Both the position numbers and the translations under genes were made by a program. Shown here in pieces: positions 9,071 through 24,493 of a stretch of DNA of 24,493 nucleotides (its first letter is position 1; each line of letters begins with the position of its first letter). Origin of the DNA: a virus; the IMG/VR virus record IMGVR_UViG_3300031599_000036, positions 1 to 24,493 of that record; one strand, 5' to 3'. The notes beneath the pieces are model-generated. The model did no database searches. It was not told the origin of the DNA and was given only the letters and a program-made list of their open reading frames with translations.

Positions 9071-9353
9071 ATTTAATGAACGAAGACATATAATTGAATT
9101 AAAAGAGTATATTGATGGTACATATGGTGAGCATTATGCTTCCGATAAGTACCAAGCAACAGATATTATTATTGATGCTGGACATGGTATGGGTTTTTGT
9201 ATGGGTAATATTTTAAAGTATGCAAAACGTTACGGAAATAAAGATGGACACAACAGAAAAGACTTGCTAAAAATCTTACACTATGGTATAATAATGCTTG
9301 ATATACACGATGATAGAGATAAGTTTTTTAAAACAGGAGAGAGTAAGTGGTAG
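9060..9353 (+). CDS. DUF3310-family protein (97 aa)
   Basis: The segment FCMGNILKYAKRYGNKDG followed by RKDLLKILHYGIIML matches the G-N-x-x-K-Y-x-x-R-Y ... DLxKxxxY pattern of DUF3310 proteins, common small phage proteins often labelled nucleotide kinase without good proof. Start ATG 9060 is preceded by GGAG (9051-9054) and lies in the endonuclease end; the in-frame ATG at 8988 lies deep inside endonuclease I and lacks a ribosome site. Its end overlaps the nrdA start by 7 nt, so a link to nucleotide supply is plausible by context only. Confidence 0.7.
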   Translation: MDYKFNERRHIIELKEYIDGTYGEHYASDKYQATDIIIDAGHGMGFCMGNILKYAKRYGNKDGHNRKDLLKILHYGIIMLDIHDDRDKFFKTGESKW

Positions 9354-11242
9354 AAGACAAAGTAGGTATCAAGGAATATCTTGGTATAAAAATTAATTAC
9401 AGTAACGAAAGAAATTTAGATAAGTTCAGCCTTGATACACTCAAGGATAGATACTTATGGGAGAATGAAACACATGCACAAGAAGCGTTCGCAAGAGCCT
9501 CCGTCTTCGGAGCAACCTACAAAGGAGTCACCAATTTTGAGTTGGCTCAACGCCTTTATCACTACAGTTCCTCTTGTTGGTTCATGTTTAGCACTCCTAT
9601 TCTTAGTAACGGGGGAACAAGTCGTGGGCTTCCTATCAGTTGTTTCCTTAATTATGTACCTGACAGCAGGGTCGGTCTATCAGATCATTATGATGAAAAT
9701 ATATGGTTGGCGAGTTCAGGTGGAGGTATTGGTGGATATTGGGGAGACATTAGGAGTAACGGTGTATCTACTACTCACGGCAGTAAGTCTACTGGTTCAA
9801 TTCCTTTCATGCATGTAGTAGATTCTCAGATGTTAGCCTTTAATCAAGGAGTAACAAGACGAGGTTCGTATGCCGCATACATGGACATCAGCCATCCGGA
9901 GATAGAAGAGTTCATAAACATTCGAAAAGAATCAGGTGGAGATATTAACAGGAAGTGTTTGAATTTACACAACGGTATTAATATCACAAATGATTTTCTT
10001 AAAGCTGTAGAAGATGATGCAGACTGGAGATTAGTTGACCCTAAATCAAACGAAGCGGTTAAGGTTGTTAATGCTAGAGACCTATGGTGGCAGATAATTA
10101 ACGCTAGAGCAGAGACAGGTGAACCGTACATGATTAACATTGATACATGTAACGAAGCTTTACCTAAAGAACAGAAAGCTTTAGGATTAAATATTAAACA
10201 AAGCAACCTATGCTCAGAGATTACACTAGCAACTAATGAAGAACGTACAGCTGTATGTTGTTTGTCTTCTGTTAATCTAGAATACTTTGATGATTGGTCA
10301 GAGAATCCAATGTTCATAGAAGATTTAATAACAATGCTCGACAATGTTTTGCAACATTACATTGACAACGCTGTCGACACAACACACTTAGGAGAATATA
10401 GTGCTAACTTTAAAAGGTTTCAAAAACATATCAAGCCGGGCAAAGAAGGGTTTACTAAATCTGCCTACTCTGCTTATCGAGAAAGGTCGCTGGGCTTGGG
10501 TGCAATGGGATTCCATTCGTATCTCCAGTCACGCAGCCTACCTTTTGAGGGTATATACGCTACGGGATTTAATCACAAAGCGTTCAAATACATTAAGAGC
10601 CAAGCTTCTAAAGCATCTGAACAACTTGCAGAAGAACGTGGTGAAGCTCCTGACATCCATGGCAGTGGGCGTAGGAATGCTCATCTCCTCGCTGTTGCTC
10701 CTAATGCCTCTTCTAGTATTATTTGTGGTGGGACATCTCCTTCTATTGAGCCATACAGGGCTAACGTATATACACACAAAACTTTATCCGGCTCCTACCA
10801 AGTAAAGAACAGACATTTAGAAAGCTTGTTAGCCACAAAGAAACTAAACAAAAATGAACTTACAGAAGTATGGAAAGATATAGCAGGACATGAAGGTTCT
10901 GTTCAACATCTTACTATACTAACTGACAAAGAAAAAGAAATATTTAAAACTGCTACTGAGTTAGATCAAGTTTGGGTTGTAGAACATGCATCTCAACGAC
11001 AAGAATTTATATGTCAAGCTCAATCAGTTAACCTATTCTTTACTATACCTACAGCTACAGAAGCACAAGAAGTGCACGATGAATACATGCAGTATGTCAA
11101 TGATGTACATTGGTATGCTATGCACAAGTTAAAATCTTTGTACTATTTTAGAACAAATGCTGCTCGTAACGCAGAGAATGTAAACACTAAAGTTCAACGC
11201 ATCAAGTTAGATGAAGTTGAATGCATAGCGTGTGAGGGATAG
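9347..11242 (+). CDS. nrdA: Class I ribonucleotide reductase, large subunit
   Basis: This 631-residue subunit reduces ribonucleotides to deoxyribonucleotides for phage DNA synthesis, using the radical made by the small subunit encoded downstream. Visible active-site elements are PISCFLNY (Cys99), SNLCSEI (Asn287, Cys289, Glu291), AVCCLSSVNL (Cys304), the radical-path pair LYY (Tyr599-Tyr600) and a C-terminal CIACEG pair (Cys626, Cys629) that shuttles electrons from a thioredoxin or glutaredoxin. It is about 130 residues shorter than E. coli NrdA and the N-terminal ATP-cone appears absent, so inhibition by dATP is not expected. The start is GTG at 9347 with AGGAG (9335-9339), inside the DUF3310 stop. 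No thioredoxin gene is seen here. Confidence 0.95.
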   Translation: MVEDKVGIKEYLGIKINYSNERNLDKFSLDTLKDRYLWENETHAQEAFARASVFGATYKGVTNFELAQRLYHYSSSCWFMFSTPILSNGGTSRGLPISCFLNYVPDSRVGLSDHYDENIWLASSGGGIGGYWGDIRSNGVSTTHGSKSTGSIPFMHVVDSQMLAFNQGVTRRGSYAAYMDISHPEIEEFINIRKESGGDINRKCLNLHNGINITNDFLKAVEDDADWRLVDPKSNEAVKVVNARDLWWQIINARAETGEPYMINIDTCNEALPKEQKALGLNIKQSNLCSEITLATNEERTAVCCLSSVNLEYFDDWSENPMFIEDLITMLDNVLQHYIDNAVDTTHLGEYSANFKRFQKHIKPGKEGFTKSAYSAYRERSLGLGAMGFHSYLQSRSLPFEGIYATGFNHKAFKYIKSQASKASEQLAEERGEAPDIHGSGRRNAHLLAVAPNASSSIICGGTSPSIEPYRANVYTHKTLSGSYQVKNRHLESLLATKKLNKNELTEVWKDIAGHEGSVQHLTILTDKEKEIFKTATELDQVWVVEHASQRQEFICQAQSVNLFFTIPTATEAQEVHDEYMQYVNDVHWYAMHKLKSLYYFRTNAARNAENVNTKVQRIKLDEVECIACEG

Positions 11243-11409: not shown

Positions 11410-12393
11410 ATGAGCTTACTAGACACACGAGATTACTATAAACCTTTCGACAATCCTTGGATGTTCGATTACTACGTACTACAAAATCAAATGCATTGGA
11501 TGCCTGAATCTGTAGCACTACACACAGATGTAAAAGATTGGCAAGAGCTATCAAAGCAAGAGAAGTATTTACTAACACAAATCTTTAGATTGTTTACTCA
11601 ATCAGATGTTGATGTAGGTGCAGGATATGTAGATAGATACATGCGTATCTTTAGAAAGCCGGAAGCTAGAATGATGATGGGTTCTTTTGCAAACATGGAA
11701 TCAATACATCAACATGCTTACAGCTTACTACTTGATACAGTAGGTATGCCTGAGATAGAGTACAAAGCCTTTGCTGAATACGAAGAGATGTCAGCCAAGC
11801 ATGAGTATGTACACAACATCAAGACTACCAAGGCAGACAAGAAAAGCATTGCAAAAACTTTAGCAGTTTACTCAGCCTTTACAGAAGGACTACAACTCTT
11901 TAGCAGCTTTGCAATCTTGTTAAACTTCCCACGCTTTGGACGTATGAAAGGTATGGGACAGATTGTTACTTACTCTATTCGTGATGAGTCAATGCATGTC
12001 GAAGCTATGACTAAATTGTTTAGAGAGTTTATTCAAGAGAACCTTGATATATGGACAGACGATTTCAAAGCAGAAATCTACGAGATATGTAGACAGATGG
12101 TTGACCTTGAAGACAAGTTCTTAGACCTAGTGTTTGACATGGGAGACCTTGAAGGACTTACAAAGAAAGATATGTATGCTTACAATAGATACATAGCTGA
12201 TAGAAGATTACTACAGCTTGGACTGAAAACAAACTATGACCAACGTGAGAATCCTCTCGGGTGGTTAGATGAAGTGATGGGTGTTGAACATCAGAACTTC
12301 TTTGAAGGTCGTGCTACTTCTTATATGAAAGCAGGACTGCGTGGTAGACAGGACAAGATTAACTTTACACCTCTGGAGAAGAAAGATGGTTAA
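11410..12393 (+). CDS. nrdB: Class I ribonucleotide reductase, small subunit
   Basis: The 327-residue subunit carries the di-iron centre and tyrosyl radical for NrdA. The metal ligands are seen in order: Asp66 (TQSDVD), Glu97 and His100 (NMESIH), Glu159 (FTEGLQLF), Glu193 and His196 (RDESMH). Tyr104 (QHAYS) is at the radical-Tyr position, E. coli Tyr122, four residues after the His ligand. This points to the conventional tyrosyl-radical subclass, not a Tyr-less variant. The gene is slightly shorter than E. coli nrdB (376 aa). It follows the zinc-ribbon gene by 1 nt, and its last 8 nt overlap the next gene. Confidence 0.95.
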   Translation: MSLLDTRDYYKPFDNPWMFDYYVLQNQMHWMPESVALHTDVKDWQELSKQEKYLLTQIFRLFTQSDVDVGAGYVDRYMRIFRKPEARMMMGSFANMESIHQHAYSLLLDTVGMPEIEYKAFAEYEEMSAKHEYVHNIKTTKADKKSIAKTLAVYSAFTEGLQLFSSFAILLNFPRFGRMKGMGQIVTYSIRDESMHVEAMTKLFREFIQENLDIWTDDFKAEIYEICRQMVDLEDKFLDLVFDMGDLEGLTKKDMYAYNRYIADRRLLQLGLKTNYDQRENPLGWLDEVMGVEHQNFFEGRATSYMKAGLRGRQDKINFTPLEKKDG

Positions 12394-12969: not shown

Positions 12970-13359
12970 TTATTTATTGTGCCAATTTATAATGGCTTTT
13001 TTTATACTTTCTTCTGCTAGTACACTACAGTGTAACTTTATAGAAGGCAACTCTAATTCTTTAGCTATATCTTTATCTTTTATTTGACTAGCTTCTTCTA
13101 CAGTTTTACCCTTTAACATATCAACAAACATTGTACTTGCTGCTATTGCCGACCCACACCCATATGTTTTAAATTTTACATCTGTTATAATGTTGTCTTT
13201 AATTTTTAATTGTAGTTTCATAACATCACCACATGCTGGAGCACCAGTTAAACCTGTTGCTACATCTGAATCTTCCGGATTGAAACGACCTACCGAATGT
13301 TTCTTAGGATTATTTAAAACACTTTCAAACCTATCAATAACTTTTTGTGAGTATGCCAT
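12970..13359 (-). CDS. iscU: Iron-sulfur cluster scaffold protein IscU
   Basis: The 129-residue protein is full-length IscU. It begins MAYSQKVID, as bacterial IscU does, and keeps GAPACGDVMKLQ (Cys43, Asp45), FKTYGCGSAIA (Cys68) and LHCSVLAE (His110, Cys111): all three cluster-binding cysteines, the Asp and the His. The IscU loop recognised by HscA, normally LPPVK, reads LPSIK (Ser106 instead of the second Pro). A short insert (VLNNPKKHS) follows the first helix. IscU builds Fe-S clusters on cysteine sulfur delivered by IscS; no IscS, HscA or ferredoxin gene is in the window, so it must use host partners. It starts one base after the nidogen-like gene stop (TAAAATG) with no Shine-Dalgarno, so it is probably translated by coupling. 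This is a host-derived metabolic gene inside a late virion/lysis operon. Confidence 0.92.
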   Translation of the reverse strand: MAYSQKVIDRFESVLNNPKKHSVGRFNPEDSDVATGLTGAPACGDVMKLQLKIKDNIITDVKFKTYGCGSAIAASTMFVDMLKGKTVEEASQIKDKDIAKELELPSIKLHCSVLAEESIKKAIINWHNK

Positions 13360-13360
13360 T

Positions 13361-15526
13361 TTATAAGTTAGGTTGTAATCGTTTCATTTCAGTAAGCATG
13401 TTAATACTCTGTCCTGCCATTTGATAAAAGCCTTCGAGGTTGTCAACTAACATGTTGTTAGCGTATATACTACGAGGGTCATACCAAGTTTCTTTCTGTG
13501 GTAGTGTCACATTTCTATAACTGTTAAAGTCTGGGACAAAGCCCATGTAGGCTATGATGGTGTCTTCTGCACCGTACTCACCTGTCTCTTCTTGTTTAGT
13601 AGTCACATCATCTTGAGCATCTTGCATGTTCTGTGCTATTATCTTATCAGCTATCAGGTCTGAATCCGAAGCTGTAGTTTCTGTTGAGACTGACACATCA
13701 ATTTGATTTTGTATAGTTTGTGTCGTGGTCGTATCTACAGATAGCGATGTAGAGACCGTCTCAACTTCCACAACTTCGGAAGACATGGAAGTACTGACAT
13801 CAGAATTAAAACTCATGTCAAGTAATTGATTGGTTTGTACAGAAGCAGATGCAAATTGTTCTGACATACTAGGAGAACTACTCGTACTCATCCCTCCACT
13901 GGAGTTAGATGCGTTAGAATTGGAAGCTCCTGTTGTGCCGCCTGTAGCGTGAATAGATGTGCCTGACGTTGTGCCACTAACACTTGCTTGAGCTGTCCGT
14001 AGCGTAGACGAGACAACCTTTAACGCCATCTCTCGTGTCACAGAACTCTTGCCTTCTTTACTCTCTGGTATAAATTCACCGGAAGCTACTTGCTCTTCAA
14101 ACTCTTCATCATTTTCTTCTACAAAGGCTTCTTCAAATACCGGTTCGTTGAATTCTTCTTCCGACTCTTCTGCAATCGCAAGAGCTTCTTCTTCGTGCCT
14201 TTCTTCATGGTGTTGTGTTTCCTCTTCAAACCATTCTTCTAGTTGTTCAATCGTTTCTAATTCTATAAATGTTTCTGGTTCTCTAAAATCTTCTACAAGA
14301 AAACTTTCCTGAAACAAAAACTCTTCTAACAGCATTTCTTCATGGTGTATAATATCTTGTTCCATATCCCATACATCCATTTGTACATCTACATCATCAT
14401 ATGAATCCATAGCTGTACTGTCCCACTCAACCATACCATCATCATTAAAACTTATATCTGCCCCAAACCATTCGTCTACTTGCTCTTGTCCAAACTGTTC
14501 AGTATCTAAGGCGTACCAATCAGCATCAGTAAATCCTTCACACCTATTCTCATAGCACGGGTCTGAGCTATCTAACCATTCGTCATACTCTTCATCGTAC
14601 CACATATCCTCTTCGTTAAAACCATAGTCTGTTTCATGGTCATAGTAGGCTACAGAGTCTTCCGTATTATATCCTTGACATGCTGGAGAATACTGGGTAT
14701 CTAATTCACATTGCCTATCATCGTAAGCGTCCCAGTAAGAAGGACACGCAGTGTTGTACAGCTGGTCCAACTCACACTGTTGTGTTTGATAAGCTGCTGC
14801 ATACCCACTACATGCTGCGTTGTTTAAAGGATCGCTACAATCTATAGCGTTACCTGTGCCAGCACCGTACAAAGAACCACCGCTTTCTAATAAAGTATTT
14901 GAGTCAGTGCTATTCCATGTTCTGCTAACACAACTGCTTGAGTTAGTTGTGCCTGTAGAACATTGATCGTGAAACAGATATTGATACACTTCTGAACTAC
15001 CACTACCCATTTCTCCTATAAGAACATCGTGCTTAATAACATCTAATGCACCATACCTAAACTCGAAGTTATCATTACGCCAGAGTATGACTTCAAAGCT
15101 GTTATCAGAAGCTCTGTTGTACTCTCTCATGTTATACCAACCAAAGACTGTCTTATCGTCAAAACTTTTAGCCACCATACTAGAGCCACTGTCTCTAATT
15201 AAGTCTGTCCAAAAAGGAAGTAGAGTATAAGTAAACTGATTAGCTAATGGGTCAGGTGTGTAGTCACTACAAAAAGCACCTGATGTTTTAAAATGTAAGC
15301 AACCATTGGTAGCCATTCTACCTTGAGTAAACGCTTGACCATAGAAATCAAAAGTAAAACCTAGATTAAAAGCAGATGAGACTTGGTCGTCTGATGCGTT
15401 AAGGTTAGTAGTGCCTGATTGATTGGTAAGGTTTATTAAAGCCTGATTGGCTTCATAGGTGTATGTGCTTGAGACATTAAGACTAAGCAGACACGCTACT
15501 GCGTAGCATAGAATTCTTTTTTGCAT
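13361..15526 (-). CDS. Secreted nidogen-like, Cys-repeat, acidic surface protein (721 aa)
   Basis: Order of parts: signal peptide (about residues 1-25, RILCYAVACLLSLNVSS); a nidogen-like beta domain (about 30-200) recognised by FDFYGQAF, ATNGCLHF and LLPFWTDL; three tandem repeats of about 22 residues with the pattern CxxDxxxxxACxxY (Cys230/239, 251/261, 273/283); a Trp/Tyr/Asp-rich region; a very acidic Glu-rich stretch (about 395-490); a Ser/Thr-rich linker (about 500-640); and a conserved-looking C-terminal domain (GFVPDFNSYRNVTLP and on). It looks like an exported adhesive or envelope protein; I cannot say whether it is in the virion. The ATG overlaps the upstream gene by 31 nt and has no Shine-Dalgarno, but the charged MQKR start and the signal peptide support it. 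Confidence 0.75.
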   Translation of the reverse strand: MQKRILCYAVACLLSLNVSSTYTYEANQALINLTNQSGTTNLNASDDQVSSAFNLGFTFDFYGQAFTQGRMATNGCLHFKTSGAFCSDYTPDPLANQFTYTLLPFWTDLIRDSGSSMVAKSFDDKTVFGWYNMREYNRASDNSFEVILWRNDNFEFRYGALDVIKHDVLIGEMGSGSSEVYQYLFHDQCSTGTTNSSSCVSRTWNSTDSNTLLESGGSLYGAGTGNAIDCSDPLNNAACSGYAAAYQTQQCELDQLYNTACPSYWDAYDDRQCELDTQYSPACQGYNTEDSVAYYDHETDYGFNEEDMWYDEEYDEWLDSSDPCYENRCEGFTDADWYALDTEQFGQEQVDEWFGADISFNDDGMVEWDSTAMDSYDDVDVQMDVWDMEQDIIHHEEMLLEEFLFQESFLVEDFREPETFIELETIEQLEEWFEEETQHHEERHEEEALAIAEESEEEFNEPVFEEAFVEENDEEFEEQVASGEFIPESKEGKSSVTREMALKVVSSTLRTAQASVSGTTSGTSIHATGGTTGASNSNASNSSGGMSTSSSPSMSEQFASASVQTNQLLDMSFNSDVSTSMSSEVVEVETVSTSLSVDTTTTQTIQNQIDVSVSTETTASDSDLIADKIIAQNMQDAQDDVTTKQEETGEYGAEDTIIAYMGFVPDFNSYRNVTLPQKETWYDPRSIYANNMLVDNLEGFYQMAGQSINMLTEMKRLQPNL

Positions 15527-16578
15527 TGCTTTTTAGTTTTAGTTTTAGTTGTGTAAAGAACCTTGACTGCCCCAACAACATCTTTGTTTATCTTGTCTCT
15601 GTTAGGGTTTCTATTCTGTGTGCATTGCTGTATAAAAAGTTTCTCTTGGTCTTTAGCATCAGGTCTACGAGATGCATTTTCAGCCCAAGCTGCTGTGGCT
15701 TCTTTGCCGATTTTTCCAAAAATTGGACAAGGTGTACCTGCCATTTCCATAGCCTTAAAAACTCGAGGGTCTTGACAAAGAATACTAACAGATGCTACTT
15801 TCATGCCGGTGTCATAGAGATATTTTGAGAGCTTTAATCTTTCACAATTTTTGTCTGTAACTGTACGTCCTGTAGAGAAACCAAACACTTGCCCTTGGTA
15901 AGCACCAGACCGTCCCACGGTGCACAAATCTTGCGAGTAAGACATAATGCTAGGGGCTATCGCAGACGCTGGAGGAGCTTTACTAGTTACATTTTGATTG
16001 ATGGTCTGAGTTGAGTTAGACTCGTTTATATTTTTGTTAGTATTATTAGAGTTGGAATTATTGTTGTTAGTATTTGTATTAGCGGTAGTAACATTGGACT
16101 CTGACTCAGACTTGTTAGTATTTGTATTGTTGTTTGTGTTTGTATTAGCTGATGTAGACGCACTTGTATTGTTGACATTTTGATTTACCGTAGAATTAAC
16201 TGTAGAATTAGACGTTGAGGTGTTTGTATTTACAGAAGTATTATTATTGGTATTGCTATTGGTATTAGCATTTGAGCTAGTAGAATTATTCGTGTTAGTG
16301 TTCGTGGAGTTATTCGTATTTTGATTGGTGTTAGTTGATGTGTTGACATTCGTGTTTTGATTTGTGTTAGTGTTGGCATTGGTATTATTATTTGTGTTAG
16401 TATTATTATTTGTATTAGTTGTAACTGTATTATTAATTGTTGTTAAACCATTATTTTCACAATACTCTGTACCAGCAGTACAGTCACCTGTCTGATCAGC
16501 TTGTAAATTTATAGATAAAAATACTACTAATGAAACAATACTTCCTACTATAATTAATGTTCTTTTTCCTTCGTTCAT
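15496..16578 (-). CDS. Anchored Asn/Thr-repeat protein with Cys-rich C-terminal domain (360 aa)
   Basis: An N-terminal hydrophobic segment (about residues 7-26) acts as signal peptide or membrane anchor, followed by a short Cys pair (Cys33, Cys40). Residues about 46-198 are an Asn/Thr/Ser tract of NT and NTN units, a disordered spacer. A globular C-terminal domain follows with DLCTVGRSGAYQGQVFGFS, KNCERLKLSKYLYDTGMKVA, LCQDPRVFKAMEMAGTPCP and further cysteines, suggesting disulfides outside the cytoplasm. I have seen this C-terminal pattern in marine phage proteins but know no function. It starts one base after the holin stop (TAAAATG) with only a weak GGGA upstream and overlaps the nidogen-like gene, so the two exported proteins probably work together. 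Confidence 0.72.
   Translation of the reverse strand: MNEGKRTLIIVGSIVSLVVFLSINLQADQTGDCTAGTEYCENNGLTTINNTVTTNTNNNTNTNNNTNANTNTNQNTNVNTSTNTNQNTNNSTNTNTNNSTSSNANTNSNTNNNTSVNTNTSTSNSTVNSTVNQNVNNTSASTSANTNTNNNTNTNKSESESNVTTANTNTNNNNSNSNNTNKNINESNSTQTINQNVTSKAPPASAIAPSIMSYSQDLCTVGRSGAYQGQVFGFSTGRTVTDKNCERLKLSKYLYDTGMKVASVSILCQDPRVFKAMEMAGTPCPIFGKIGKEATAAWAENASRRPDAKDQEKLFIQQCTQNRNPNRDKINKDVVGAVKVLYTTKTKTKKQCKKEFYATQ
15988..16443 (-). repeat. Imperfect hexanucleotide tract coding Asn-Thr repeats
   Basis: About 150 codons made mostly of AAY and ACW/AGY codons, read on the - strand, giving a degenerate (AAYACN)n repeat. Such a tract can change length by slippage or recombination. Occasional Val, Ala, Ser and Glu codons break it. 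Confidence 0.8.
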
Positions 16579-16579
16579 T

Positions 16580-16966
16580 TTATTTTTCCCTGTTGACCCC
16601 TTTCATTTTCTCAAAGGTTCTAAGACCTCCAAGTCCCAACATCCCCATTAAAATACTACTTAGCTGTGAGAATTCAAACTCCGGTAGTATAACTTCTGCA
16701 CCTGCCATAGTAAAAACAAACACCATGAAAGGTGAAAGTAAAAAATGGTAGAGTAAAGATACACCACACACCCAACCAACAAAAGGTCTCCAGCCACTAA
16801 CAAACATAGATGTATGTGCAGCTTCAACTTTGTTTACTTCTAGTTGGGCAAGGTTTGCCTTGTGTAAAGACATCCCAAGCTCATGAGTTAATTTCTTTTG
16901 TAAGTCTTTATCAGGTATTAGCTTTCCTACTATATCGCTGATGGGTCCTATTAATTTATCTATCAT
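16580..16966 (-). CDS. Holin, 3-TM type
   Basis: The 128-residue protein carries the conserved segment of the three-TM holin family described for gene transfer agents and many phages: MFVSGWRPFVGWVCGVSL (about residues 54-71), followed by two further hydrophobic spans (LLYHFLLSPFMVFVFTMAG and LSSILMGMLGLGGLRTF) and a basic tail. The N-terminal 50 residues form a charged amphipathic helix. It would open the inner membrane so that the lysozyme, which lacks a signal, reaches the cell wall. ATG 16966 lies in the end of the 47-aa gene (11-nt overlap), with a weak GGAAGA before it. Lysozyme is two genes upstream, a typical lysis cassette. Confidence 0.8.
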   Translation of the reverse strand: MIDKLIGPISDIVGKLIPDKDLQKKLTHELGMSLHKANLAQLEVNKVEAAHTSMFVSGWRPFVGWVCGVSLLYHFLLSPFMVFVFTMAGAEVILPEFEFSQLSSILMGMLGLGGLRTFEKMKGVNREK

Positions 16967-17099
16967 AATTTTCTTCCATTAATTCTTCATAAAGTTTTCT
17001 AAAGTGTTCAAGTTCCATAAAGGCTAACCCTCGTCCTAGTTGATGCATCCTATAAATGTTGTAAGATATTTCTAATTGATCTTCAGTGTATAGTAGCAT
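16956..17099 (-). CDS. Small protein between lysozyme and holin (47 aa)
   Basis: A 47-residue ORF on the - strand that starts in TAATG, sharing one base with the lysozyme stop, and overlaps the holin start by 11 nt. The product is soluble, helical and acidic at the C-terminus (LEHFRKLYEELMEENYDR); no membrane segment, so not an antiholin of the usual kind. Exact tiling with both neighbours is the main evidence that it is real. No Shine-Dalgarno; probably translated by coupling. Function unknown, possibly lysis timing by context. Confidence 0.65.
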   Translation of the reverse strand: MLLYTEDQLEISYNIYRMHQLGRGLAFMELEHFRKLYEELMEENYDR

Positions 17100-17551
17100 T
17101 ATACTAAGTTTAAAACTAACTGTTGTAGCTCTCCGCTACGTCTACCAACTTGTTTAAACCACCTACTATCTTCCATTTGTATAGCCATCTCAGTCCAGTT
17201 GTTTTCTTTACAAGCTTTTAACATGTTACGAAACTTAGAAAGTCTTGTACCACCTAGGTTAAAACACATGTTAACTAACACACGTTGAATATCTTCTGGA
17301 AGATTATTAAAATCTACCTCACTACCAAAGACATGTACAGTTTCATAGTAATGTTTGTGAAAATCTTGTTCATAATATTTGTCTACAACTTCTTGTGATA
17401 CAGGTGTACCTATTTCCCAGTCGTATTCTGCATCATTTGGTTGACATAGATGACCAACTCCTAGAGTCTTATAACCTAAACTGTCGTTATAAATCTCTAG
17501 GACTTCGCCCTCGTGTCTTTTAATTTCCCATTTGCATAAGTCTATGTTCAT
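17099..17551 (-). CDS. Endolysin, T4-type lysozyme (GH24)
   Basis: A 150-residue muramidase that cuts the peptidoglycan MurNAc-GlcNAc bond. The catalytic triad has T4 spacing: Glu14 (KRHEG), Asp23 (YNDSLGYKT) and Thr29 (YKTLGVGH), equal to T4 Glu11, Asp20 and Thr26. VLVNMCFNLGG and SRWFKQVGRRSGEL also match the T4 lysozyme C-terminal domain. There is no signal peptide or SAR segment, so release depends on the holin. ATG 17551 has AGGAG on the - strand (17556-17560) and overlaps the stop of the 1741-aa gene (ATGA). Lysis genes placed directly behind virion genes fit late expression. Confidence 0.92.
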   Translation of the reverse strand: MNIDLCKWEIKRHEGEVLEIYNDSLGYKTLGVGHLCQPNDAEYDWEIGTPVSQEVVDKYYEQDFHKHYYETVHVFGSEVDFNNLPEDIQRVLVNMCFNLGGTRLSKFRNMLKACKENNWTEMAIQMEDSRWFKQVGRRSGELQQLVLNLV

Positions 17552-20500
17552 GTAGTCTCCTGTTTTTTATCTGCATCGTCCATTTCCATTAACATTTTTC
17601 CAGCTGCCGGAATACTGATACCATATTTTTTAGCAATCTCAATAATACGAGCATCAAAAACAACATAGTTGCGTCCTTTCTTACTCCCAGATTTTCTGCT
17701 TAGTCCATCAAGAAATTTAATTCCTTGCACACCTTCTGCTTTTAACAAATCTTCTATGTATACTTTCTTTGGGTTTATAGGTTTTGTAGCAGTAGGACTA
17801 GAAAATTTTTCAATATCAAATATACGATTCATTCCTGCAACAAACTCTCCACCAGTTATTTCTTCTAGTGCAACTCTAGCATCAGATCGAAATTGATCTA
17901 AGTCTAGCTTTCCAGCTTTATCAAGTTTTGTCCACGAAGGATACTTACCAAATTGATTAATAAATAACTCTAGTTCGGTAGGTGTTAATCTATCAAGTGC
18001 TATTTCTGCCGCATTTATAACTCCGCTTGATTGACTAGACATTTTCATATCCCAATCTAACAAATGAGTCTTAGTAGTTTTAAGGTTTACATCATATAGT
18101 TTACCTTGTTTAACAGGAAGACTAGACTTTTTAGGCTTTCCATTGTCTAGTTCTTTTAGTTGTTTTAATTTAGCTGCCGCTTGATCAAGGTATGTTTTTT
18201 CTAAACGTGCTGCTTCACTTAAAGATATTTCACTAGCTTGTCCACTTTTGTGAACTTTTTCTGCTTTGAATATAAGATCATGATATTCTTGTGCTAGTTC
18301 TCTGCTTAGTACTCGAGAACTAACTTGTTCTCTGTACATTTTTGCTATGTCTAAATTTTCAGCAAAGTATAAACCTTTACCATATCCCATTGCTCCTTCA
18401 CCTGATTTTAAAAAGTCAGTTGTAAACTTTTCAAAGTCGTAAGCTGTGCCATGATGTGCTGGTATTCCAACAAAATCATCATCAGCAAGTATTCTTTTTT
18501 GCGTATACTTAAGTGGAAGCAAAGGAATTTCTTTTGGGTTTAAAGGTTCGGCTTTTGGCAGAACAGTTTCGGTTGCTTCTTTAGCACCCCTTGTTGCTCC
18601 TCTTTTAGCTAACTGTTGAAACAGTACACCACCAAAACTTTTCTGTTCACGCTGATAAGGTTCACCTGTATAAGGGTCTACCCTATCTGCTGGGTTTTCT
18701 TTCGTGTAAGGGACAAGTAAAGGACTATTTATTAAACCACCTGTTACTTTAGGAACCCTGCCACGTTTTAACATTTCTAAAGCTTCACGCCCTTTAACAG
18801 TATATTTGTCTCTTGTTTCTAATAAAGGAAGTTGTGTAAGTAAAGAAGTTAAATCTGCTAATGTTTTTTTGATTACTGTTTTATCAGCATCAGGATGCAT
18901 TCTAAAAAACTCTTCTAATTCTATAGTTGTAGGAACAATAGGAATAAATGTATCTCTAGCATAATTACCATTGTTTAATTGGTTTCTTAAAATTTCAGTA
19001 AATCCTGCGTCTTTTAATACTGACTCAATTTTATCATAAGCTATAGTACCATCTGATGTAATGGTTCCTATGTTATACCTAGGAGATTGTCCACTGTCCA
19101 TCTTTTTTCTATCTATCATAGCTAGTTGTCTTAAACTATCTACCATTTGTTTTGTCTCAACATACTGAGTATAGTATATTTTGTTAGCTCTTAAAAAATT
19201 ATTATAAAGATCATCAACAGTAATAGGAGTTCTTGAGCTACCATAGTTGCTTGTCATAACACTTTTAGCTACTCTTTTTTCTGAATCAAAATCATAAAGT
19301 TTTTGTTTAAAAGACTTAAGTAAAGTTTTTTCTGTAACAGGTTTGTAATTAAACCCAACTGCGTTACGCCATGCCTCTAATTCTAAACTTGGTTTTACTC
19401 CATACTTATCTTCTTTAGGGTCTACGGCTCTTACAATACTTTGAACGTTGTCAATAACTGCTGGTTTGAGAGCAGTGTTCCACGCATGTGTTGCTACAGC
19501 TAGTATATTTTCAACCCGAATATCTCCAGTTGCGTTTTTTGATTTAACATATCCCGGGATATCAAACCCATCAGCATCTGTACCATCTCTGGCTATAGTA
19601 TCAATTAAGACTGAGCCTAATAAATTTTCATCAAAGAAAGGTGCTGAAATAGAAACAACTGAATTTATTAAAAATTTATTAAGCACTGAGTCTAACTCTT
19701 CTTCTGCAACATTTCCAGTTGCTACCATTTTTAAAGCTAAATCTAAACTAGCGTCATTAACAGGAGCATCAGGATCAATAAACTTCATATCAACAAATAA
19801 TAAATCTCCTGTGCTGCTTTGTGTATCATAAATCCAATTATCGCCATGATAATCTTTTTTCATAATATTTTTAATGTGTTCATCTTCATCACTAGACACA
19901 CCTGCAAATGCCATAGCACCGGCACTAGTAATGTATCCTCCTCTTGAGCCTACAGCAATCTTTGCTCCCAATCGTTGAATTCCTCTGTTTCGAATTATTT
20001 CATTACCCGATTCATAGCCAGATTTAACTTCTTTCCACCCTTGTTTATATGTCTTGACAGTATTTCTAAATCTTTCTGCGTGAAATGAAAAGTAATTACC
20101 CCAAGGAGAATATCTTAAAGCTTTAAATCCTTCAGGAATCATATCATATGTAGGCATTACATCTCTTGTAATTTGAGCTGCTTGTTGTTCTAAAGCATCA
20201 GCCGACATATTTGGAAAAGCTTTTTTAAGTGTTGCTAATTCTTTTTCAAACACAGCTATCTTCCATATATCATCTTCTGCCACATACAGTCTTTCAATAC
20301 CTTTGTATGTACCTCGTAAAGATTTACCACCTACTGAAAAATCTAAAACTTGGTTAGCATATCCAGCTGCTCCAGTCTTACTAGCACTTTGCAATAGCTG
20401 TCGAATATCACCAATCTTAGCATTTTGATTAACAATTCCAAGTCTTAAATATCTATTGTACAAATTGTCAAGAGCTTCATCTCCACCCTTTATAACGTTG

Positions 20501-22773
20501 TTCCAAGCAATCTCAGTTGCTTCCCAAGATGTTTTACTAAAAGGATTTAGTCCATTACTAAGCATAATAATACCACTACTTTGAAAGTTTCTTTCATGCG
20601 TAACATTATTAAGAACAGTTTTAGAACCCTGTCCAAATCCTTTTGCAGCGTATAATAATTTTACTGCTTGTGGAATTTTTGACCAGTCTGCTGCTTTGTC
20701 TATTGCTTTGCCGGGTCTTAAAAAATTGACCCACATAGAATCTGTAGTCCACTGCCCGTCTAAAGAGCCAAACTCTTTGCCTTTAATCTGTCGGTCAAAT
20801 TGACCTGTAGCATTTTTAAAAAAATATTTACCTTCACCCATCCTATAGAATTTTTCAAACGTGTTTTGTTTAGCAATAAAATCTGATAAAGTATTAATCG
20901 TACTAAACACTCGATTGCCTGTGTTTGTTTCTTTACCTAAAAGATTTTCTATAGATTTATGAATTTTAAGTTTTTCTTTAAAAATAATACTAGCGTCTTT
21001 TCCGCCTTTTACAGTATTTAAAAATTGAAACATATCATCACTGTATTGAGCTTCTCTTAGTAAAATAGTAACAGAAGCCTCTGCTTGTTTTTTTAATACG
21101 TCAGAGCTTACTCCAAAATTAGAATTTCCCGGAATCTCACTTTGTTTTAAAAATTGTCTGTGTATGTAAGCTGTTGCATCATCAACATGTTGCTGTGATG
21201 GTTTGTAATTAGGGTCTTCAAACTTCTTGTAAGTTGTTCTTAAATAACTTCCTAAGTTTTCTCTGATAGCTTTTTTTAGTTCTGGGTCTATACCTTTACT
21301 TTGACCTATTAATTCTGAAAGTTCATCAATACTATCTCTAGCTTCTTTGGCTACAGACTGCATACTTTTGGGTAAATCTTTTAATGGTTTATTCCCAAAT
21401 AAATAACCATCAAATAAATCTTGACTAAGTCTTTCTCGTAGTTCATCATTGTTACTAAACTTACTTCCTCGCTGTACAGCTAAAGTTTCAATTTGAGAAT
21501 TAATTCTATTCATTAATTGCTCACCTTTTGCAGCCCACGCAACTTGAGCATTTTTGTTTAAGTTTAAAACTTGAAACATCTTAGGAGTTTTAGTTCCTTC
21601 TGATCTAAAGAATGCACCATACATTGTACTTAACCATCGTTGATGTTTATTATCACTAAACCTCCATAGGTCTACAACCTCATCAGTTTCAGGACCCCTT
21701 AATTCACTAGGTGTTTTGCTGACTAATGGTTTGTTTTCTGCAGATATTTGTATAACTTTTATAAGCTCTTGTTTTTCTGCAGGTGTTCCAGTCTCTTTAA
21801 CACTTTTAAATTTGTTAAATAATTCTTTACCACTACGGTATATTGTTGGTCCAAATTGAATAACTCCTGTAATTCCTGCAGATATAAATAAACCATCAAA
21901 TAATAACGCAGCACGATTTTCTAAATCAGTTTTATCTTTACTAGAAGATACATACTCAAGTAGAGTACTCATAGTACCTTCATTGTTGCTTGCAAAACCA
22001 CCTAACCACTCACCTAAGAAAGCAGTTTGTGGGTCTAATGTTACCTGAGATACTGCTTCACCAATAGCTATTCCTTCAGCTACTTTTTTTGTTCTAATAT
22101 AGTTACCCGGTAACAGACTGGATATTCTTGCATCTGGATATGCTGTTTGAAGTTTTTTTATTTTTTTAAGTTCTCTTGCTTTTTTAATAGAGTTAAACCA
22201 TGTAGTTCCTGTATATAAACCTAATGCAAATTCAGTTCCTTCTTTAACAAGTGTTCCAAATATAGTTTCTGGTCTTTTAGTTTTACCAATTTTTACTCCC
22301 GGCTCGTCTTCGTACCTATCAATATTTTCTTTGCCTACGACTAATTGAGTTGCAGCAGTAGAAAAATCTGCTGCTCCTTTACGCACTGACTCAGGTATAT
22401 ATTGTCTTAACCCAACATCAAGTGCTAAATCCGAGAAATCCCGTATATTTGCTATAGGAGCTACAGCAACATTTTTTTTAACCGAGTCAGGGACTAAACC
22501 AAAAAGTCTTTGAAAAGCTGGTTCAAATGACTCAACAATTTTTTGACTAGTTGAATAGTTAAAGGGAGTAATTTTTTTCTGTAGCTCTGTCTGACTTAAA
22601 TTATCATCAACGCTATAGTCTGTTTTAAAACTTTGAAAAGACTCATATTGATCTTTAAGTTTATCTTTACTATAAAGTTCTCGCAATAATTCATCATCAT
22701 CTAAAGTAAGATATCTTGATGTAGGGTTTGCAGTGTATAAGTTAGATTTAACTAATTCTAATTTTGTTGCCAT
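17548..22773 (-). CDS. Very large internal-virion-type protein with C-terminal ADP-ribosyltransferase-like domain (1741 aa)
   Basis: A mostly helical giant protein. Its size, place in the late operon and helical, charged composition resemble the ejected internal proteins of podoviruses (T7 gp16, 1318 aa), though no transglycosylase motif is seen. The C-terminal part (about 1436-1715) looks like the ART found in phage polyvalent proteins: an HHGT start (His1440-Thr1443) in AHHGTAYDFEKF, GMGYGKGLYFAE-like GYGKGLYFAEN with the NAD-site Tyr, EGVQGIKFLDG and the terminal RNYVVFDARIIEIAKKYG (Asn1702 on). The family transfers ADP-ribose from NAD to a target. An insert of some 100 residues with a coiled segment separates the first and last ART motifs. 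If ejected, it could modify host proteins on entry, as T4 Alt does (inference). ATG 22773 has a modest AGGAT. Confidence 0.7.
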   Translation of the reverse strand: MATKLELVKSNLYTANPTSRYLTLDDDELLRELYSKDKLKDQYESFQSFKTDYSVDDNLSQTELQKKITPFNYSTSQKIVESFEPAFQRLFGLVPDSVKKNVAVAPIANIRDFSDLALDVGLRQYIPESVRKGAADFSTAATQLVVGKENIDRYEDEPGVKIGKTKRPETIFGTLVKEGTEFALGLYTGTTWFNSIKKARELKKIKKLQTAYPDARISSLLPGNYIRTKKVAEGIAIGEAVSQVTLDPQTAFLGEWLGGFASNNEGTMSTLLEYVSSSKDKTDLENRAALLFDGLFISAGITGVIQFGPTIYRSGKELFNKFKSVKETGTPAEKQELIKVIQISAENKPLVSKTPSELRGPETDEVVDLWRFSDNKHQRWLSTMYGAFFRSEGTKTPKMFQVLNLNKNAQVAWAAKGEQLMNRINSQIETLAVQRGSKFSNNDELRERLSQDLFDGYLFGNKPLKDLPKSMQSVAKEARDSIDELSELIGQSKGIDPELKKAIRENLGSYLRTTYKKFEDPNYKPSQQHVDDATAYIHRQFLKQSEIPGNSNFGVSSDVLKKQAEASVTILLREAQYSDDMFQFLNTVKGGKDASIIFKEKLKIHKSIENLLGKETNTGNRVFSTINTLSDFIAKQNTFEKFYRMGEGKYFFKNATGQFDRQIKGKEFGSLDGQWTTDSMWVNFLRPGKAIDKAADWSKIPQAVKLLYAAKGFGQGSKTVLNNVTHERNFQSSGIIMLSNGLNPFSKTSWEATEIAWNNVIKGGDEALDNLYNRYLRLGIVNQNAKIGDIRQLLQSASKTGAAGYANQVLDFSVGGKSLRGTYKGIERLYVAEDDIWKIAVFEKELATLKKAFPNMSADALEQQAAQITRDVMPTYDMIPEGFKALRYSPWGNYFSFHAERFRNTVKTYKQGWKEVKSGYESGNEIIRNRGIQRLGAKIAVGSRGGYITSAGAMAFAGVSSDEDEHIKNIMKKDYHGDNWIYDTQSSTGDLLFVDMKFIDPDAPVNDASLDLALKMVATGNVAEEELDSVLNKFLINSVVSISAPFFDENLLGSVLIDTIARDGTDADGFDIPGYVKSKNATGDIRVENILAVATHAWNTALKPAVIDNVQSIVRAVDPKEDKYGVKPSLELEAWRNAVGFNYKPVTEKTLLKSFKQKLYDFDSEKRVAKSVMTSNYGSSRTPITVDDLYNNFLRANKIYYTQYVETKQMVDSLRQLAMIDRKKMDSGQSPRYNIGTITSDGTIAYDKIESVLKDAGFTEILRNQLNNGNYARDTFIPIVPTTIELEEFFRMHPDADKTVIKKTLADLTSLLTQLPLLETRDKYTVKGREALEMLKRGRVPKVTGGLINSPLLVPYTKENPADRVDPYTGEPYQREQKSFGGVLFQQLAKRGATRGAKEATETVLPKAEPLNPKEIPLLPLKYTQKRILADDDFVGIPAHHGTAYDFEKFTTDFLKSGEGAMGYGKGLYFAENLDIAKMYREQVSSRVLSRELAQEYHDLIFKAEKVHKSGQASEISLSEAARLEKTYLDQAAAKLKQLKELDNGKPKKSSLPVKQGKLYDVNLKTTKTHLLDWDMKMSSQSSGVINAAEIALDRLTPTELELFINQFGKYPSWTKLDKAGKLDLDQFRSDARVALEEITGGEFVAGMNRIFDIEKFSSPTATKPINPKKVYIEDLLKAEGVQGIKFLDGLSRKSGSKKGRNYVVFDARIIEIAKKYGISIPAAGKMLMEMDDADKKQETT

Positions 22774-22797: not shown

Positions 22798-24493
22798 TTA
22801 TTGGTCAGGAAGCATAGCTTGTTCTAGCTCATCGTCAAAGTTTAATTCTATTTCAGGTTGGAATACACCCAGCCACTCATTCTGCTGAACGTAATTTCTA
22901 GTTATTGTTCGCATTTTTTCTGCTCTCATTATTTCTTCTACTCTTTCTAAAGAAACCTGTATACTACCATCTTCTTCTATCCTAGCCCGACGATTTTCTA
23001 CTGCTGATATGCCTGTACTACTAGCAAAAAATGCATCTAATTGAGAAATAGATCGTGTTGCTGCACCTGCTGTAATCGAAGCCATGTCATTACCTTTATT
23101 TAATTTTTGAGATGTCCAATTATCTAGAATTTTTTTTCTTCTTTCTTCTATAAAAGTATCAAGGTTTTCTTGAGTTTCTTCTCCTTTACTAACTAACTCT
23201 GTCATTTGCATAATATCTAGTTGAACTGACATAAGTTGTTGAACTTCAGATTCATATTGAACTAGAGCACTATCTTGATAGCCTGATGCTTTTCTAGCAG
23301 CAGCATACTTAGAGCCGTTTCTTGAATAGTCATCTTCTCGTTTTTTCTCCCAAGCTTTATGTGCTACTTCAAACTCTGCATCAGTTTCAAAGTCACCTAG
23401 TGCTGGTCTTGTTTTAATATAGTCTTCATCATTATTTTTGTAAGCATTAAATATTGATTGTCTAGCGTTAATACCATCCATTACAACAGCTGTTTGAATA
23501 ATCTCTAGGACGTCTTCTTCAGTTTTAGTCTCTGAATCTTTAAACATCTGAATTGCTTCTTTACGTGCTCCAGCAGTTGTTAATTTTTTAAACATATCAT
23601 TTCGTCTGAATTGCCCTTCAGAAAATTGAGTTCCTGCTTCAAATTCTGATGGTAACATTCCTACAGAAACTTTTTGTCCTGTTTCTTCTTCATACTCTGC
23701 AGCAGTTACTCTTTTGTCTTTGTATACAAACTTGCCATCTTTAGGAGTAGCCGATTCAAGATTATAAAGATTTTTCATTTTATAGTTTTCATCAAAGTCT
23801 GATGCAAATATACTACCTAAGTTATTTCCATTATTTCTTCTTTGATTATATTTGTCAACAACAGCTTTTGTTGTAGCAACCTCATCAAGGTATTTTTGAT
23901 CTCCACCAATACCTATAAAATTTAAACCTTTATGCACAAGACTTGTTTTTCCCGGAGAAGAAGCTAGTGCAGCTTTTGCTTTAAATAAATCTTTTACTGG
24001 TTTAGAATATTCTTCAAAGGTATCAATGTTTTTATCAATGTTAACATACTTTGCATCGTGTCTAGGCATTAAGAACTCATCTGTGTACCTTTGCATAGCT
24101 TGTCTTTTTTTATTATAGTTGGGTGAACTTGTATCTTCAAAGTCTAAAGGGTCAAAACCTGCAGCTTGGTTTTCTGCGTTGTTAAACCAAGACTCTGCCT
24201 CACTTTCAAAATGTTGATACGCCCCTTTAGTTTTAATAGAATCTTGTGCTTCTAAAATTTTAGCTCGTTTGTTAAACTCAGCTTGAGCTTTTGCAAGTTT
24301 TACAGTTTTGTTATCGTCTAACTCTTGTAAATTTTTTAATACGCTAGACTGTCTTTTACTTTCCCAAGCGTTAAATCCTAACATAGCTATTAATGCGTTT
24401 CTACTTTTTTTACTGTTTTTACTATTTCCAGAAAAATAACCTGCCGCTAACTCTCCCCATGATTGTCCGGGAGTTTGTTTACCTAGTAAACTT
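22798..24493 (-). CDS. Partial helical virion-type protein, 5' end beyond the window
   Basis: At least 564 residues ending LEQAMLPDQ, helical and highly charged, rich in Glu, Lys, Gln and Ala, with no recognised domain. The first in-window Met with a long frame is at 24384, but no Shine-Dalgarno precedes it and the frame stays open through 36 more codons to the window edge (SLLGKQTPGQSWGELAAGYF and on), with coding-like composition. The true start is therefore outside. It lies 24 nt upstream of the 1741-aa gene; a pair of long helical proteins recalls T7 gp15/gp16, so an internal virion (core or ejection) protein is the best guess. Confidence 0.7.
   Translation of the reverse strand, partial: SLLGKQTPGQSWGELAAGYFSGNSKNSKKSRNALIAMLGFNAWESKRQSSVLKNLQELDDNKTVKLAKAQAEFNKRAKILEAQDSIKTKGAYQHFESEAESWFNNAENQAAGFDPLDFEDTSSPNYNKKRQAMQRYTDEFLMPRHDAKYVNIDKNIDTFEEYSKPVKDLFKAKAALASSPGKTSLVHKGLNFIGIGGDQKYLDEVATTKAVVDKYNQRRNNGNNLGSIFASDFDENYKMKNLYNLESATPKDGKFVYKDKRVTAAEYEEETGQKVSVGMLPSEFEAGTQFSEGQFRRNDMFKKLTTAGARKEAIQMFKDSETKTEEDVLEIIQTAVVMDGINARQSIFNAYKNNDEDYIKTRPALGDFETDAEFEVAHKAWEKKREDDYSRNGSKYAAARKASGYQDSALVQYESEVQQLMSVQLDIMQMTELVSKGEETQENLDTFIEERRKKILDNWTSQKLNKGNDMASITAGAATRSISQLDAFFASSTGISAVENRRARIEEDGSIQVSLERVEEIMRAEKMRTITRNYVQQNEWLGVFQPEIELNFDDELEQAMLPDQ

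What the first reader, a model, noticed from the sequence alone, without database searches (positions are those of the whole stretch)
17548..18470. ADP-ribosyltransferase-like domain at the end of a probably ejected virion protein
The last 300 residues of the 1741-aa protein show the ART-of-polyvalent-proteins signature: HHGT...FEKF, GYGKGLYFAEN and a closing NYVVFDARIIEI. T4 injects Alt, an ART that modifies host RNA polymerase, so a T7-like phage placing an ART on its giant internal protein may do similar early takeover. The large insert inside the domain is unusual. Seen: motifs and position. Known: ART family traits. Inferred: ejection and target.
Basis: partly seen in the sequence, partly recalled or inferred. 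Interest (0 to 1): 0.68.

Follow-up and report, generated by a model that had tools for sequence, protein, structure and literature searches.

The report
ADP-ribosyltransferase cargo on phage ejection protein
The giant internal protein of a marine phage ends in an enzyme-like domain of the ADP-ribosyltransferase family, a known kind of cargo that phages are thought to inject with their DNA to modify host molecules; the target is unknown.

Summary
Residues about 1434-1719 of the 1741-aa protein (window 17548-22773, minus strand) form an ADP-ribosyltransferase (ART) domain. It shares homology over its full length with phage and plasmid ARTs (best E 3e-21), and H1441 and Y1469 are essentially invariant in 76 aligned sequences. 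A confident AlphaFold2 model (pLDDT 85.5) has its best PDB match (Z 11.4) in the region of cyanophage A4's solved pre-ejectosome protein (9k3a_B) that carries the same H and Y motifs. It is a long-insert branch of the described ART-PolyVal (H-Y-D) kind, not of the T4 Alt (R-S-E) kind. The large insert is a family trait, not an oddity.

The rest of the protein belongs to a virion-protein family: Cellulophaga phi18:3 gp123 was found by MS/MS and matches the core profile at E 2.6e-62. Virion location is therefore well supported; ejection is inferred. An RNA-polymerase target has no support here.

One addition. In marine relatives the C-terminal cargo varies and often follows a linker, VPFTKENPADRINPxTGEPY, conserved at the protein level and shared by giant proteins whose cores show no detectable similarity. 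New member of a known kind, with a possibly new cargo-junction motif.

The parts
17548..22773 (-). giant protein, 1741 aa: virion-protein core plus linker plus C-terminal ART
19549..21336 (-). conserved core (residues 480-1075), homologous to MS/MS-detected virion protein phi18:3 gp123 and to structural proteins of HTVC027P and Y3
18664..18714 (-). linker VPYTKENPADRVDPYTG (residues 1354-1370), a junction motif shared by giant proteins with unrelated cores and cargos
17617..18474 (-). ART domain (residues about 1434-1719)
18451..18453 (-). H1441, strand 1 (H of the H-Y-D triad), 74 of 75
18367..18369 (-). Y1469, strand 2 (Y of the triad), 76 of 76
17653..17655 (-). D1707, end of strand 5 (D of the triad), 64 of 76
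17668..17670 (-). N1702, invariant (76 of 76), start of strand 5; by motif register (my reading) it sits where PARP1 has its catalytic Glu
17695..17709 (-). D1689 and R1693 (KFLDGLSR), both invariant in 76 of 76
18145..18354 (-). insert 1: long helical hairpin (model residues 45-114)
17737..18027 (-). insert 2: helices between the LDWD..SxQS motif and strand 4 (model residues 154-250)
17099..17551 (-). lysozyme gene (Phage_lysozyme, E 7e-10), overlapping the end of the giant ORF; in HTVC103P gp52 a lysozyme domain is fused at the C-terminus instead
16580..16966 (-). holin gene
22798..24384 (-). upstream 528-aa late protein (frame open to the window edge, 564 aa), partner of the giant protein in L002, L004 and L005

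Best explanation
The giant protein is an internal (ejection-type) virion protein. Its C-terminal about 290 residues are an ART domain of a long-insert branch of the polyvalent-protein ART kind (H-Y-D active site). Proposed mechanism: the protein is packed in the capsid, leaves the virion with or ahead of the DNA, and its ART domain uses host NAD+ to ADP-ribosylate a host macromolecule early in infection, or to interfere with NAD-based defence. Shown: homology, conserved pocket residues, predicted fold, and membership of the core in a family with an MS/MS-detected virion protein. Inferred: packaging of this particular protein, ejection, enzymatic activity, target.
For: ART: full-length homology to phiGT1_5, Tunturi_5, vir555 and plasmid proteins. 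Motif conservation in 76 sequences: H 74/75, Y 76/76, D1689, R1693 and N1702 76/76, D1707 64/76. AF2 model with pLDDT 85.5 and strands carrying H, Y and N/D in ART order. Best PDB match 9k3a_B at Z 11.4 over 177 residues, next row 8.7; PARP/tankyrase chains and diphtheria toxin at about 8. BFVD: 26 hits at E<=1e-3, several named ART-PolyVal. Virion: core profile hits phi18:3 gp123, annotated from MS/MS proteomics, at E 2.6e-62; Y3 protein matches virion-structural phrog_22602 at E 3e-80 and itself carries an ART-PolyVal match; HTVC027P gp85 is a putative structural protein. Delivery: 9k3a_B is A4 gp27, titled pre-ejectosome, and its matched region carries HGT and GTYF. ARTs also sit in giant proteins beside 'internal virion protein' genes in vir555 and LS06-2018-MD07. 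Purifying selection between window and L002 (dN/dS 0.35 overall, 0.44 in the ART). Literature predicts exactly this role (PMC5512222, PMC9503650).
Against: No direct proteomics of this phage. The Pfam cut-off is not reached. The invariant N1702 stands where many ARTs have Glu, so the reaction could be weak, NADase-like or absent. Most core homologues lack this ART profile, so the domain is accessory. The PDB Foldseek search gave no hit at E<=0.001, and Z values near 8 are in the noise zone by the tool's own note. BLAST finds no ART-region alignment between window and A4 gp27, and profile comparison gives only a weak 33-column alignment.
Confidence: 0.74

Rival explanations
1. The ART fold is retained but catalytically inactive: a structural or NAD/ADP-ribose-binding cargo, or a decoy for host NAD-based defence.
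For: N at the place of the usual catalytic Glu in all 76 sequences, and D1707 replaced by N, S or R in some.
Against: H, Y, D1689, R1693 and N1702 are essentially invariant over very divergent sequences, which is unusual for dead enzymes; the published triad for this clade is H-Y-D, not H-Y-E (PMC5512222).
Confidence: 0.17
2. The ART acts during assembly or late infection (on phage proteins or late host targets) and is not delivered at entry.
For: The gene is a late-type gene next to lysis genes; synthesis is late.
Against: The core belongs to a virion-protein family; cyanophage A4 has an ART-like region inside a pre-ejectosome protein.
Confidence: 0.15
3. The domain modifies host RNA polymerase as T4 Alt does.
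For: Analogy of delivery only.
Against: Different ART clade: Alt is R-S-E, this is H-Y-D/N (PMC5512222). No tool result points to RNA polymerase.
Confidence: 0.07
4. Not an ART: a chance match of short motifs.
For: Sub-threshold Pfam score.
Against: E 3e-21 full-length homology, 536 relatives in IMG/VR, confident fold.
Confidence: 0.02

Closest known systems
ART-PolyVal (PF18760) ARTs of polyvalent proteins, Tox-ART-HYD2 clade (Iyer et al. 2017, PMC5512222)
   Same: H in strand 1, Y in strand 2, D at strand 5; sits in large multidomain phage proteins; phiGT1_5, the best isolate match, is noted in its record as closest to BAR32501, a protein cited in that paper
   Different: two helical inserts, about 240 residues between Y and D; invariant N before YVVFD; scores below the Pfam cut-off
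Cyanophage A4 (Anabaena phage A-4L) gp27, pre-ejectosome protein, PDB 9k3a_B
   Same: giant internal protein in a phage of the same gene layout; C-terminal region with H and Y motifs, best fold match
   Different: no detectable sequence similarity in the core; shorter domain; followed by a further tail
Pseudoalteromonas phage vB_Pun_Y3 ORF31 (annotated ADP-ribosyltransferase, PMC11654794)
   Same: homologous core (E 1e-29) and an ART-PolyVal match in one protein
   Different: ART is compact and N-terminal; a separate 3421-aa protein is encoded just upstream
T4 Alt
   Same: ART associated with a virion and (for Alt, known) injected
   Different: different ART clade (R-S-E), different carrier protein; known target RNA polymerase does not transfer
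HTVC027P gp85 and HTVC103P gp52 (pelagiphages)
   Same: giant late proteins; HTVC027P shares the core, HTVC103P shares genome layout and position
   Different: no ART found; HTVC103P carries a methyltransferase-like domain (by eye) and a lysozyme at the C-terminus

Membership tests
ART-PolyVal / Tox-ART-HYD2 ARTs | His in strand 1 | tested here: met
   H1441, 74 of 75 sequences, in strand 8-14 of the model
ART-PolyVal / Tox-ART-HYD2 ARTs | Tyr in strand 2 | tested here: met
   Y1469, 76 of 76, in strand 39-42 of the model
ART-PolyVal / Tox-ART-HYD2 ARTs | Asp in strand 5 | tested here: met
   D1707 at the end of strand 272-276, 64 of 76; which Asp the paper means is my reading
ART-PolyVal / Tox-ART-HYD2 ARTs | score over the curated Pfam cut-off (a database threshold, not a biological trait) | tested here: not met
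   22.5 vs 31.2 bits; phiGT1_5 (30.0), Y3 (28.9) and Teredinibacter (25.2) also fall short; hence filed as a long-insert relative rather than a plain member
ART-PolyVal / Tox-ART-HYD2 ARTs | ART fold | tested here: met
   model pLDDT 85.5; BFVD hits named ART-PolyVal with E down to 2.9e-11; PDB best 9k3a_B Z 11.4
ART-PolyVal / Tox-ART-HYD2 ARTs | NAD+-dependent ADP-ribosyl transfer | not testable with these tools
   needs biochemistry
Alt/VIP2 ARTs (T4 Alt) | R-S-E active site | tested here: not met
   H and Y in place of R and S; N1702/D1707 in place of E
Internal/ejection virion proteins of podoviruses | present in the virion | tested here: inconclusive
   not measured for this phage; core homologue phi18:3 gp123 found by MS/MS
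Internal/ejection virion proteins of podoviruses | ejected into the host | not testable with these tools
   inferred from A4 pre-ejectosome and literature
T7 gp16-like core protein | transglycosylase/lysozyme domain within the giant protein | tested here: not met
   none found in the 1741 aa; the lysozyme is a separate downstream gene

The most novel reading that the evidence does not exclude
Giant internal proteins of marine podovirus-like phages have a defined C-terminal cargo slot: a linker (VPFTKENPADRINPxTGEPYxEQMxRLGF) conserved at the protein level marks the junction and is shared even between giant proteins whose cores show no similarity, and behind it enzymes (several ART kinds, methyltransferase, HExxH protein, lysozymes, carboxypeptidase-like) are swapped. 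The linker would be a functional part of cargo loading, processing or release.
Probability: 0.3. Interest if true: 0.65.

Novelty: new member of a known kind. Interest (0 to 1): 0.38.

Why it matters
It adds a clear marine case to the idea that phages inject ARTs on large multidomain proteins, and links that sequence-based idea to a solved pre-ejectosome structure with an ART-like region in the same kind of protein. The swapping of C-terminal modules behind a conserved linker, if confirmed, would give a handle for finding injected effectors in phages of abundant ocean bacteria and for asking how cargo is loaded and released.

Tried and rejected
PHROGs and NCBIfam gave no match for the giant protein. 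PDB sequence searches with the protein or the ART alignment found no relative. Foldseek against PDB gave no hit at E<=0.001; only the VIA-align second look was informative. HTVC103P gp52 was tested as a homologue of the whole protein: none detectable by BLAST. A second structure prediction, of the 'HGSS' C-terminal module of L003/L178/L204 (a possible second ART kind in the same slot), gave a poor model (pLDDT 58) from a shallow alignment, so its ART identity rests on motifs and one weak Pfam hit (E 0.019). A weak match of the 528-aa neighbour to a VIP2-like ART (E 0.02) was taken as chance. The idea that the linker is shared only by recent DNA exchange was tested: at residues that agree, codons agree 55% of the time against 50% expected from codon usage, so synonymous sites are near saturation. 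The linker was not found in isolate phages. The A4 paper (doi 10.1073/pnas.2423403122) is not held and is known only from a reference list.

Full report
WHAT IS THERE. The window encodes a 1741-aa protein at 17548-22773, minus strand. Residues 1430-1741 match ART proteins over nearly their whole length: Sulfitobacter phage phiGT1_5 (E 3e-21), Tunturiibacter phage Tunturi_5 (2e-10) and a Teredinibacter plasmid (3e-16); the methanogen virus vir555 matches over about half (4e-8). Pfam ART-PolyVal matches only residues 1440-1489, below its cut-off. The scan patterns covered GEGxQxYG and LDWD only, so the conservation of the His and of the closing strand is independent of them.

ACTIVE SITE AND FOLD. 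In 76 aligned sequences (A3), H1441 is 74/75, Y1469 76/76, D1689, R1693 and N1702 76/76, and D1707 64/76. Iyer et al. 2017 (PMC5512222) define the polyvalent-protein ARTs by H in strand 1, Y in strand 2 and D in strand 5, and separate them from Alt/VIP2 (R-S-E). AlphaFold2 on A3 gave pLDDT 85.5 and pTM 0.79, with strands at 8-14 (H12), 39-42 (Y40), 129-135, 255-259, 272-276 (N273, D278 just after) and 282-287. By motif register with [E]YIVYD of PARP1 (from memory), the invariant N1702 stands at the usual catalytic Glu; whether this changes chemistry is open. Best PDB match on a second look: 9k3a_B, Z 11.4, 177 residues; PARP and tankyrase chains and diphtheria toxin score about 8, which the tool marks as weak. 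BFVD gives 26 hits at E<=1e-3, several named ART-PolyVal.

THE A4 LINK. 9k3a_B is identical to gp27 of Anabaena phage A-4L, an entry titled 'Cyanophage A4 pre-ejectosome'. Its matched region (1418-1603) contains LYHGT (H1426) and GTYFS (Y1448). BLAST finds no ART-region alignment with the window protein, and a profile comparison finds only a weak 33-column alignment over these motifs (E 0.007, probability 5.5). The evidence is therefore fold plus motif. The genome layout of A-4L (replication genes one way, structural genes the other) is like the window's.

THE INSERT. The two helical inserts are a family trait: Y-D spacing is 174-267, median 213.5, window 238 (rank 11 of 76).

THE CARRIER. Residues about 480-1065 form a core found in HTVC027P gp85, 023Pt, Y3 and Cellulophaga phi18:3. 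phi18:3 gp123 is annotated 'based on experimental MS/MS proteomics analysis' and hits the core profile, which did not include it, at E 2.6e-62. The Y3 protein hits phrog_22602, virion structural protein. Downstream lie a lysozyme gene overlapping the stop, and a holin. In HTVC103P (DNA polymerase 52% identical to the window's) the giant protein gp52 at the matching position carries a lysozyme domain fused at its C-terminus. Virion location of the family is thus well supported; that of this protein is inferred, and ejection more so.

CARGO SWAPPING AND A LINKER. Among 72 core homologues examined from IMG/VR, only L203 carries the same long-insert ART by profile; the named set adds window, L002 and L004. 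Others with extra C-terminal length carry other modules: an HGSS/YTS module that weakly hits ART-PolyVal in L178 (structure inconclusive), a second ART-PolyVal half-match in L188 and a methyltransferase in L180, and HExxH proteins in L179 and L212 (by eye). L004 and L203 also carry an RGG..SVFA module and a methyltransferase-like stretch before the ART (by eye for the RGG module). Upstream of the cargo is often the linker VPFTKENPADRINPxTGEPY. L016 has the same linker and the closest ART outside L002 (46% identity) but a core that the core profile does not detect. A DNA pattern for NPADRINP found 26 stretches, 23 of them in such proteins by inspection, followed by lysozyme-like, carboxypeptidase-like, methyltransferase and ART modules (several of these names are by eye). 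Codons at identical residues agree 55% against 50% expected, so conservation is at the protein level. The linker was not found in isolates. Its function is unknown.

SELECTION. Window against L002: dN/dS 0.35 overall, 0.20 in the core, 0.44 in the ART (29 differences only). The domain is under constraint, apparently less than the core.

JUDGEMENT. The ART and the virion-type carrier are well supported; injection and enzymatic action are the best reading; the RNA-polymerase target is not supported. This is a new member, with a long insert, of a kind described in 2017 and surveyed in 2022 (PMC9503650). The linker and cargo-slot pattern is the part a specialist might not know.

Noticed in passing
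18664-18714 (minus); L016, L201, L279, L289, L290, L299 and others: Linker VPYTKENPADRVDPYTG shared by giant phage proteins with unrelated cores and cargos; conserved at protein level with near-saturated synonymous sites.
   Followed up: partly
L004:7518-14447 and L203: Homologous giant proteins with an RGG..SVFA module (ART-like by eye), a methyltransferase-like stretch and the long-insert ART in one polypeptide.
   Followed up: partly
L003:3610-4131, L178:7019-7519, L204:8566-9066, L213:2894-3487: A different C-terminal module (HGSS...YTS...) in the same slot on a homologous core; weak ART-PolyVal hit, structure prediction inconclusive.
   Followed up: partly
17099-17551 and HTVC103P gp52: The lysozyme is a separate gene overlapping the giant ORF in the window but a fused C-terminal domain in HTVC103P.
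   Followed up: partly
L003:5391-6222: Downstream ORFs look like CsgF- and CsgG-like proteins (by eye only).
   Followed up: no
12970-13359, 9347-11242, 11410-12393: NifU-like Fe-S scaffold protein and both ribonucleotide reductase subunits encoded by the phage.
   Followed up: no
15496-16578: 360-aa protein with Asn-rich repeats and a C-terminal stretch shared with several pelagiphages (about 50-60% identity).
   Followed up: no
alignment A3, window 17668-17670: Invariant Asn at the place of the usual ART catalytic Glu in 76 of 76 long-insert ARTs.
   Followed up: partly
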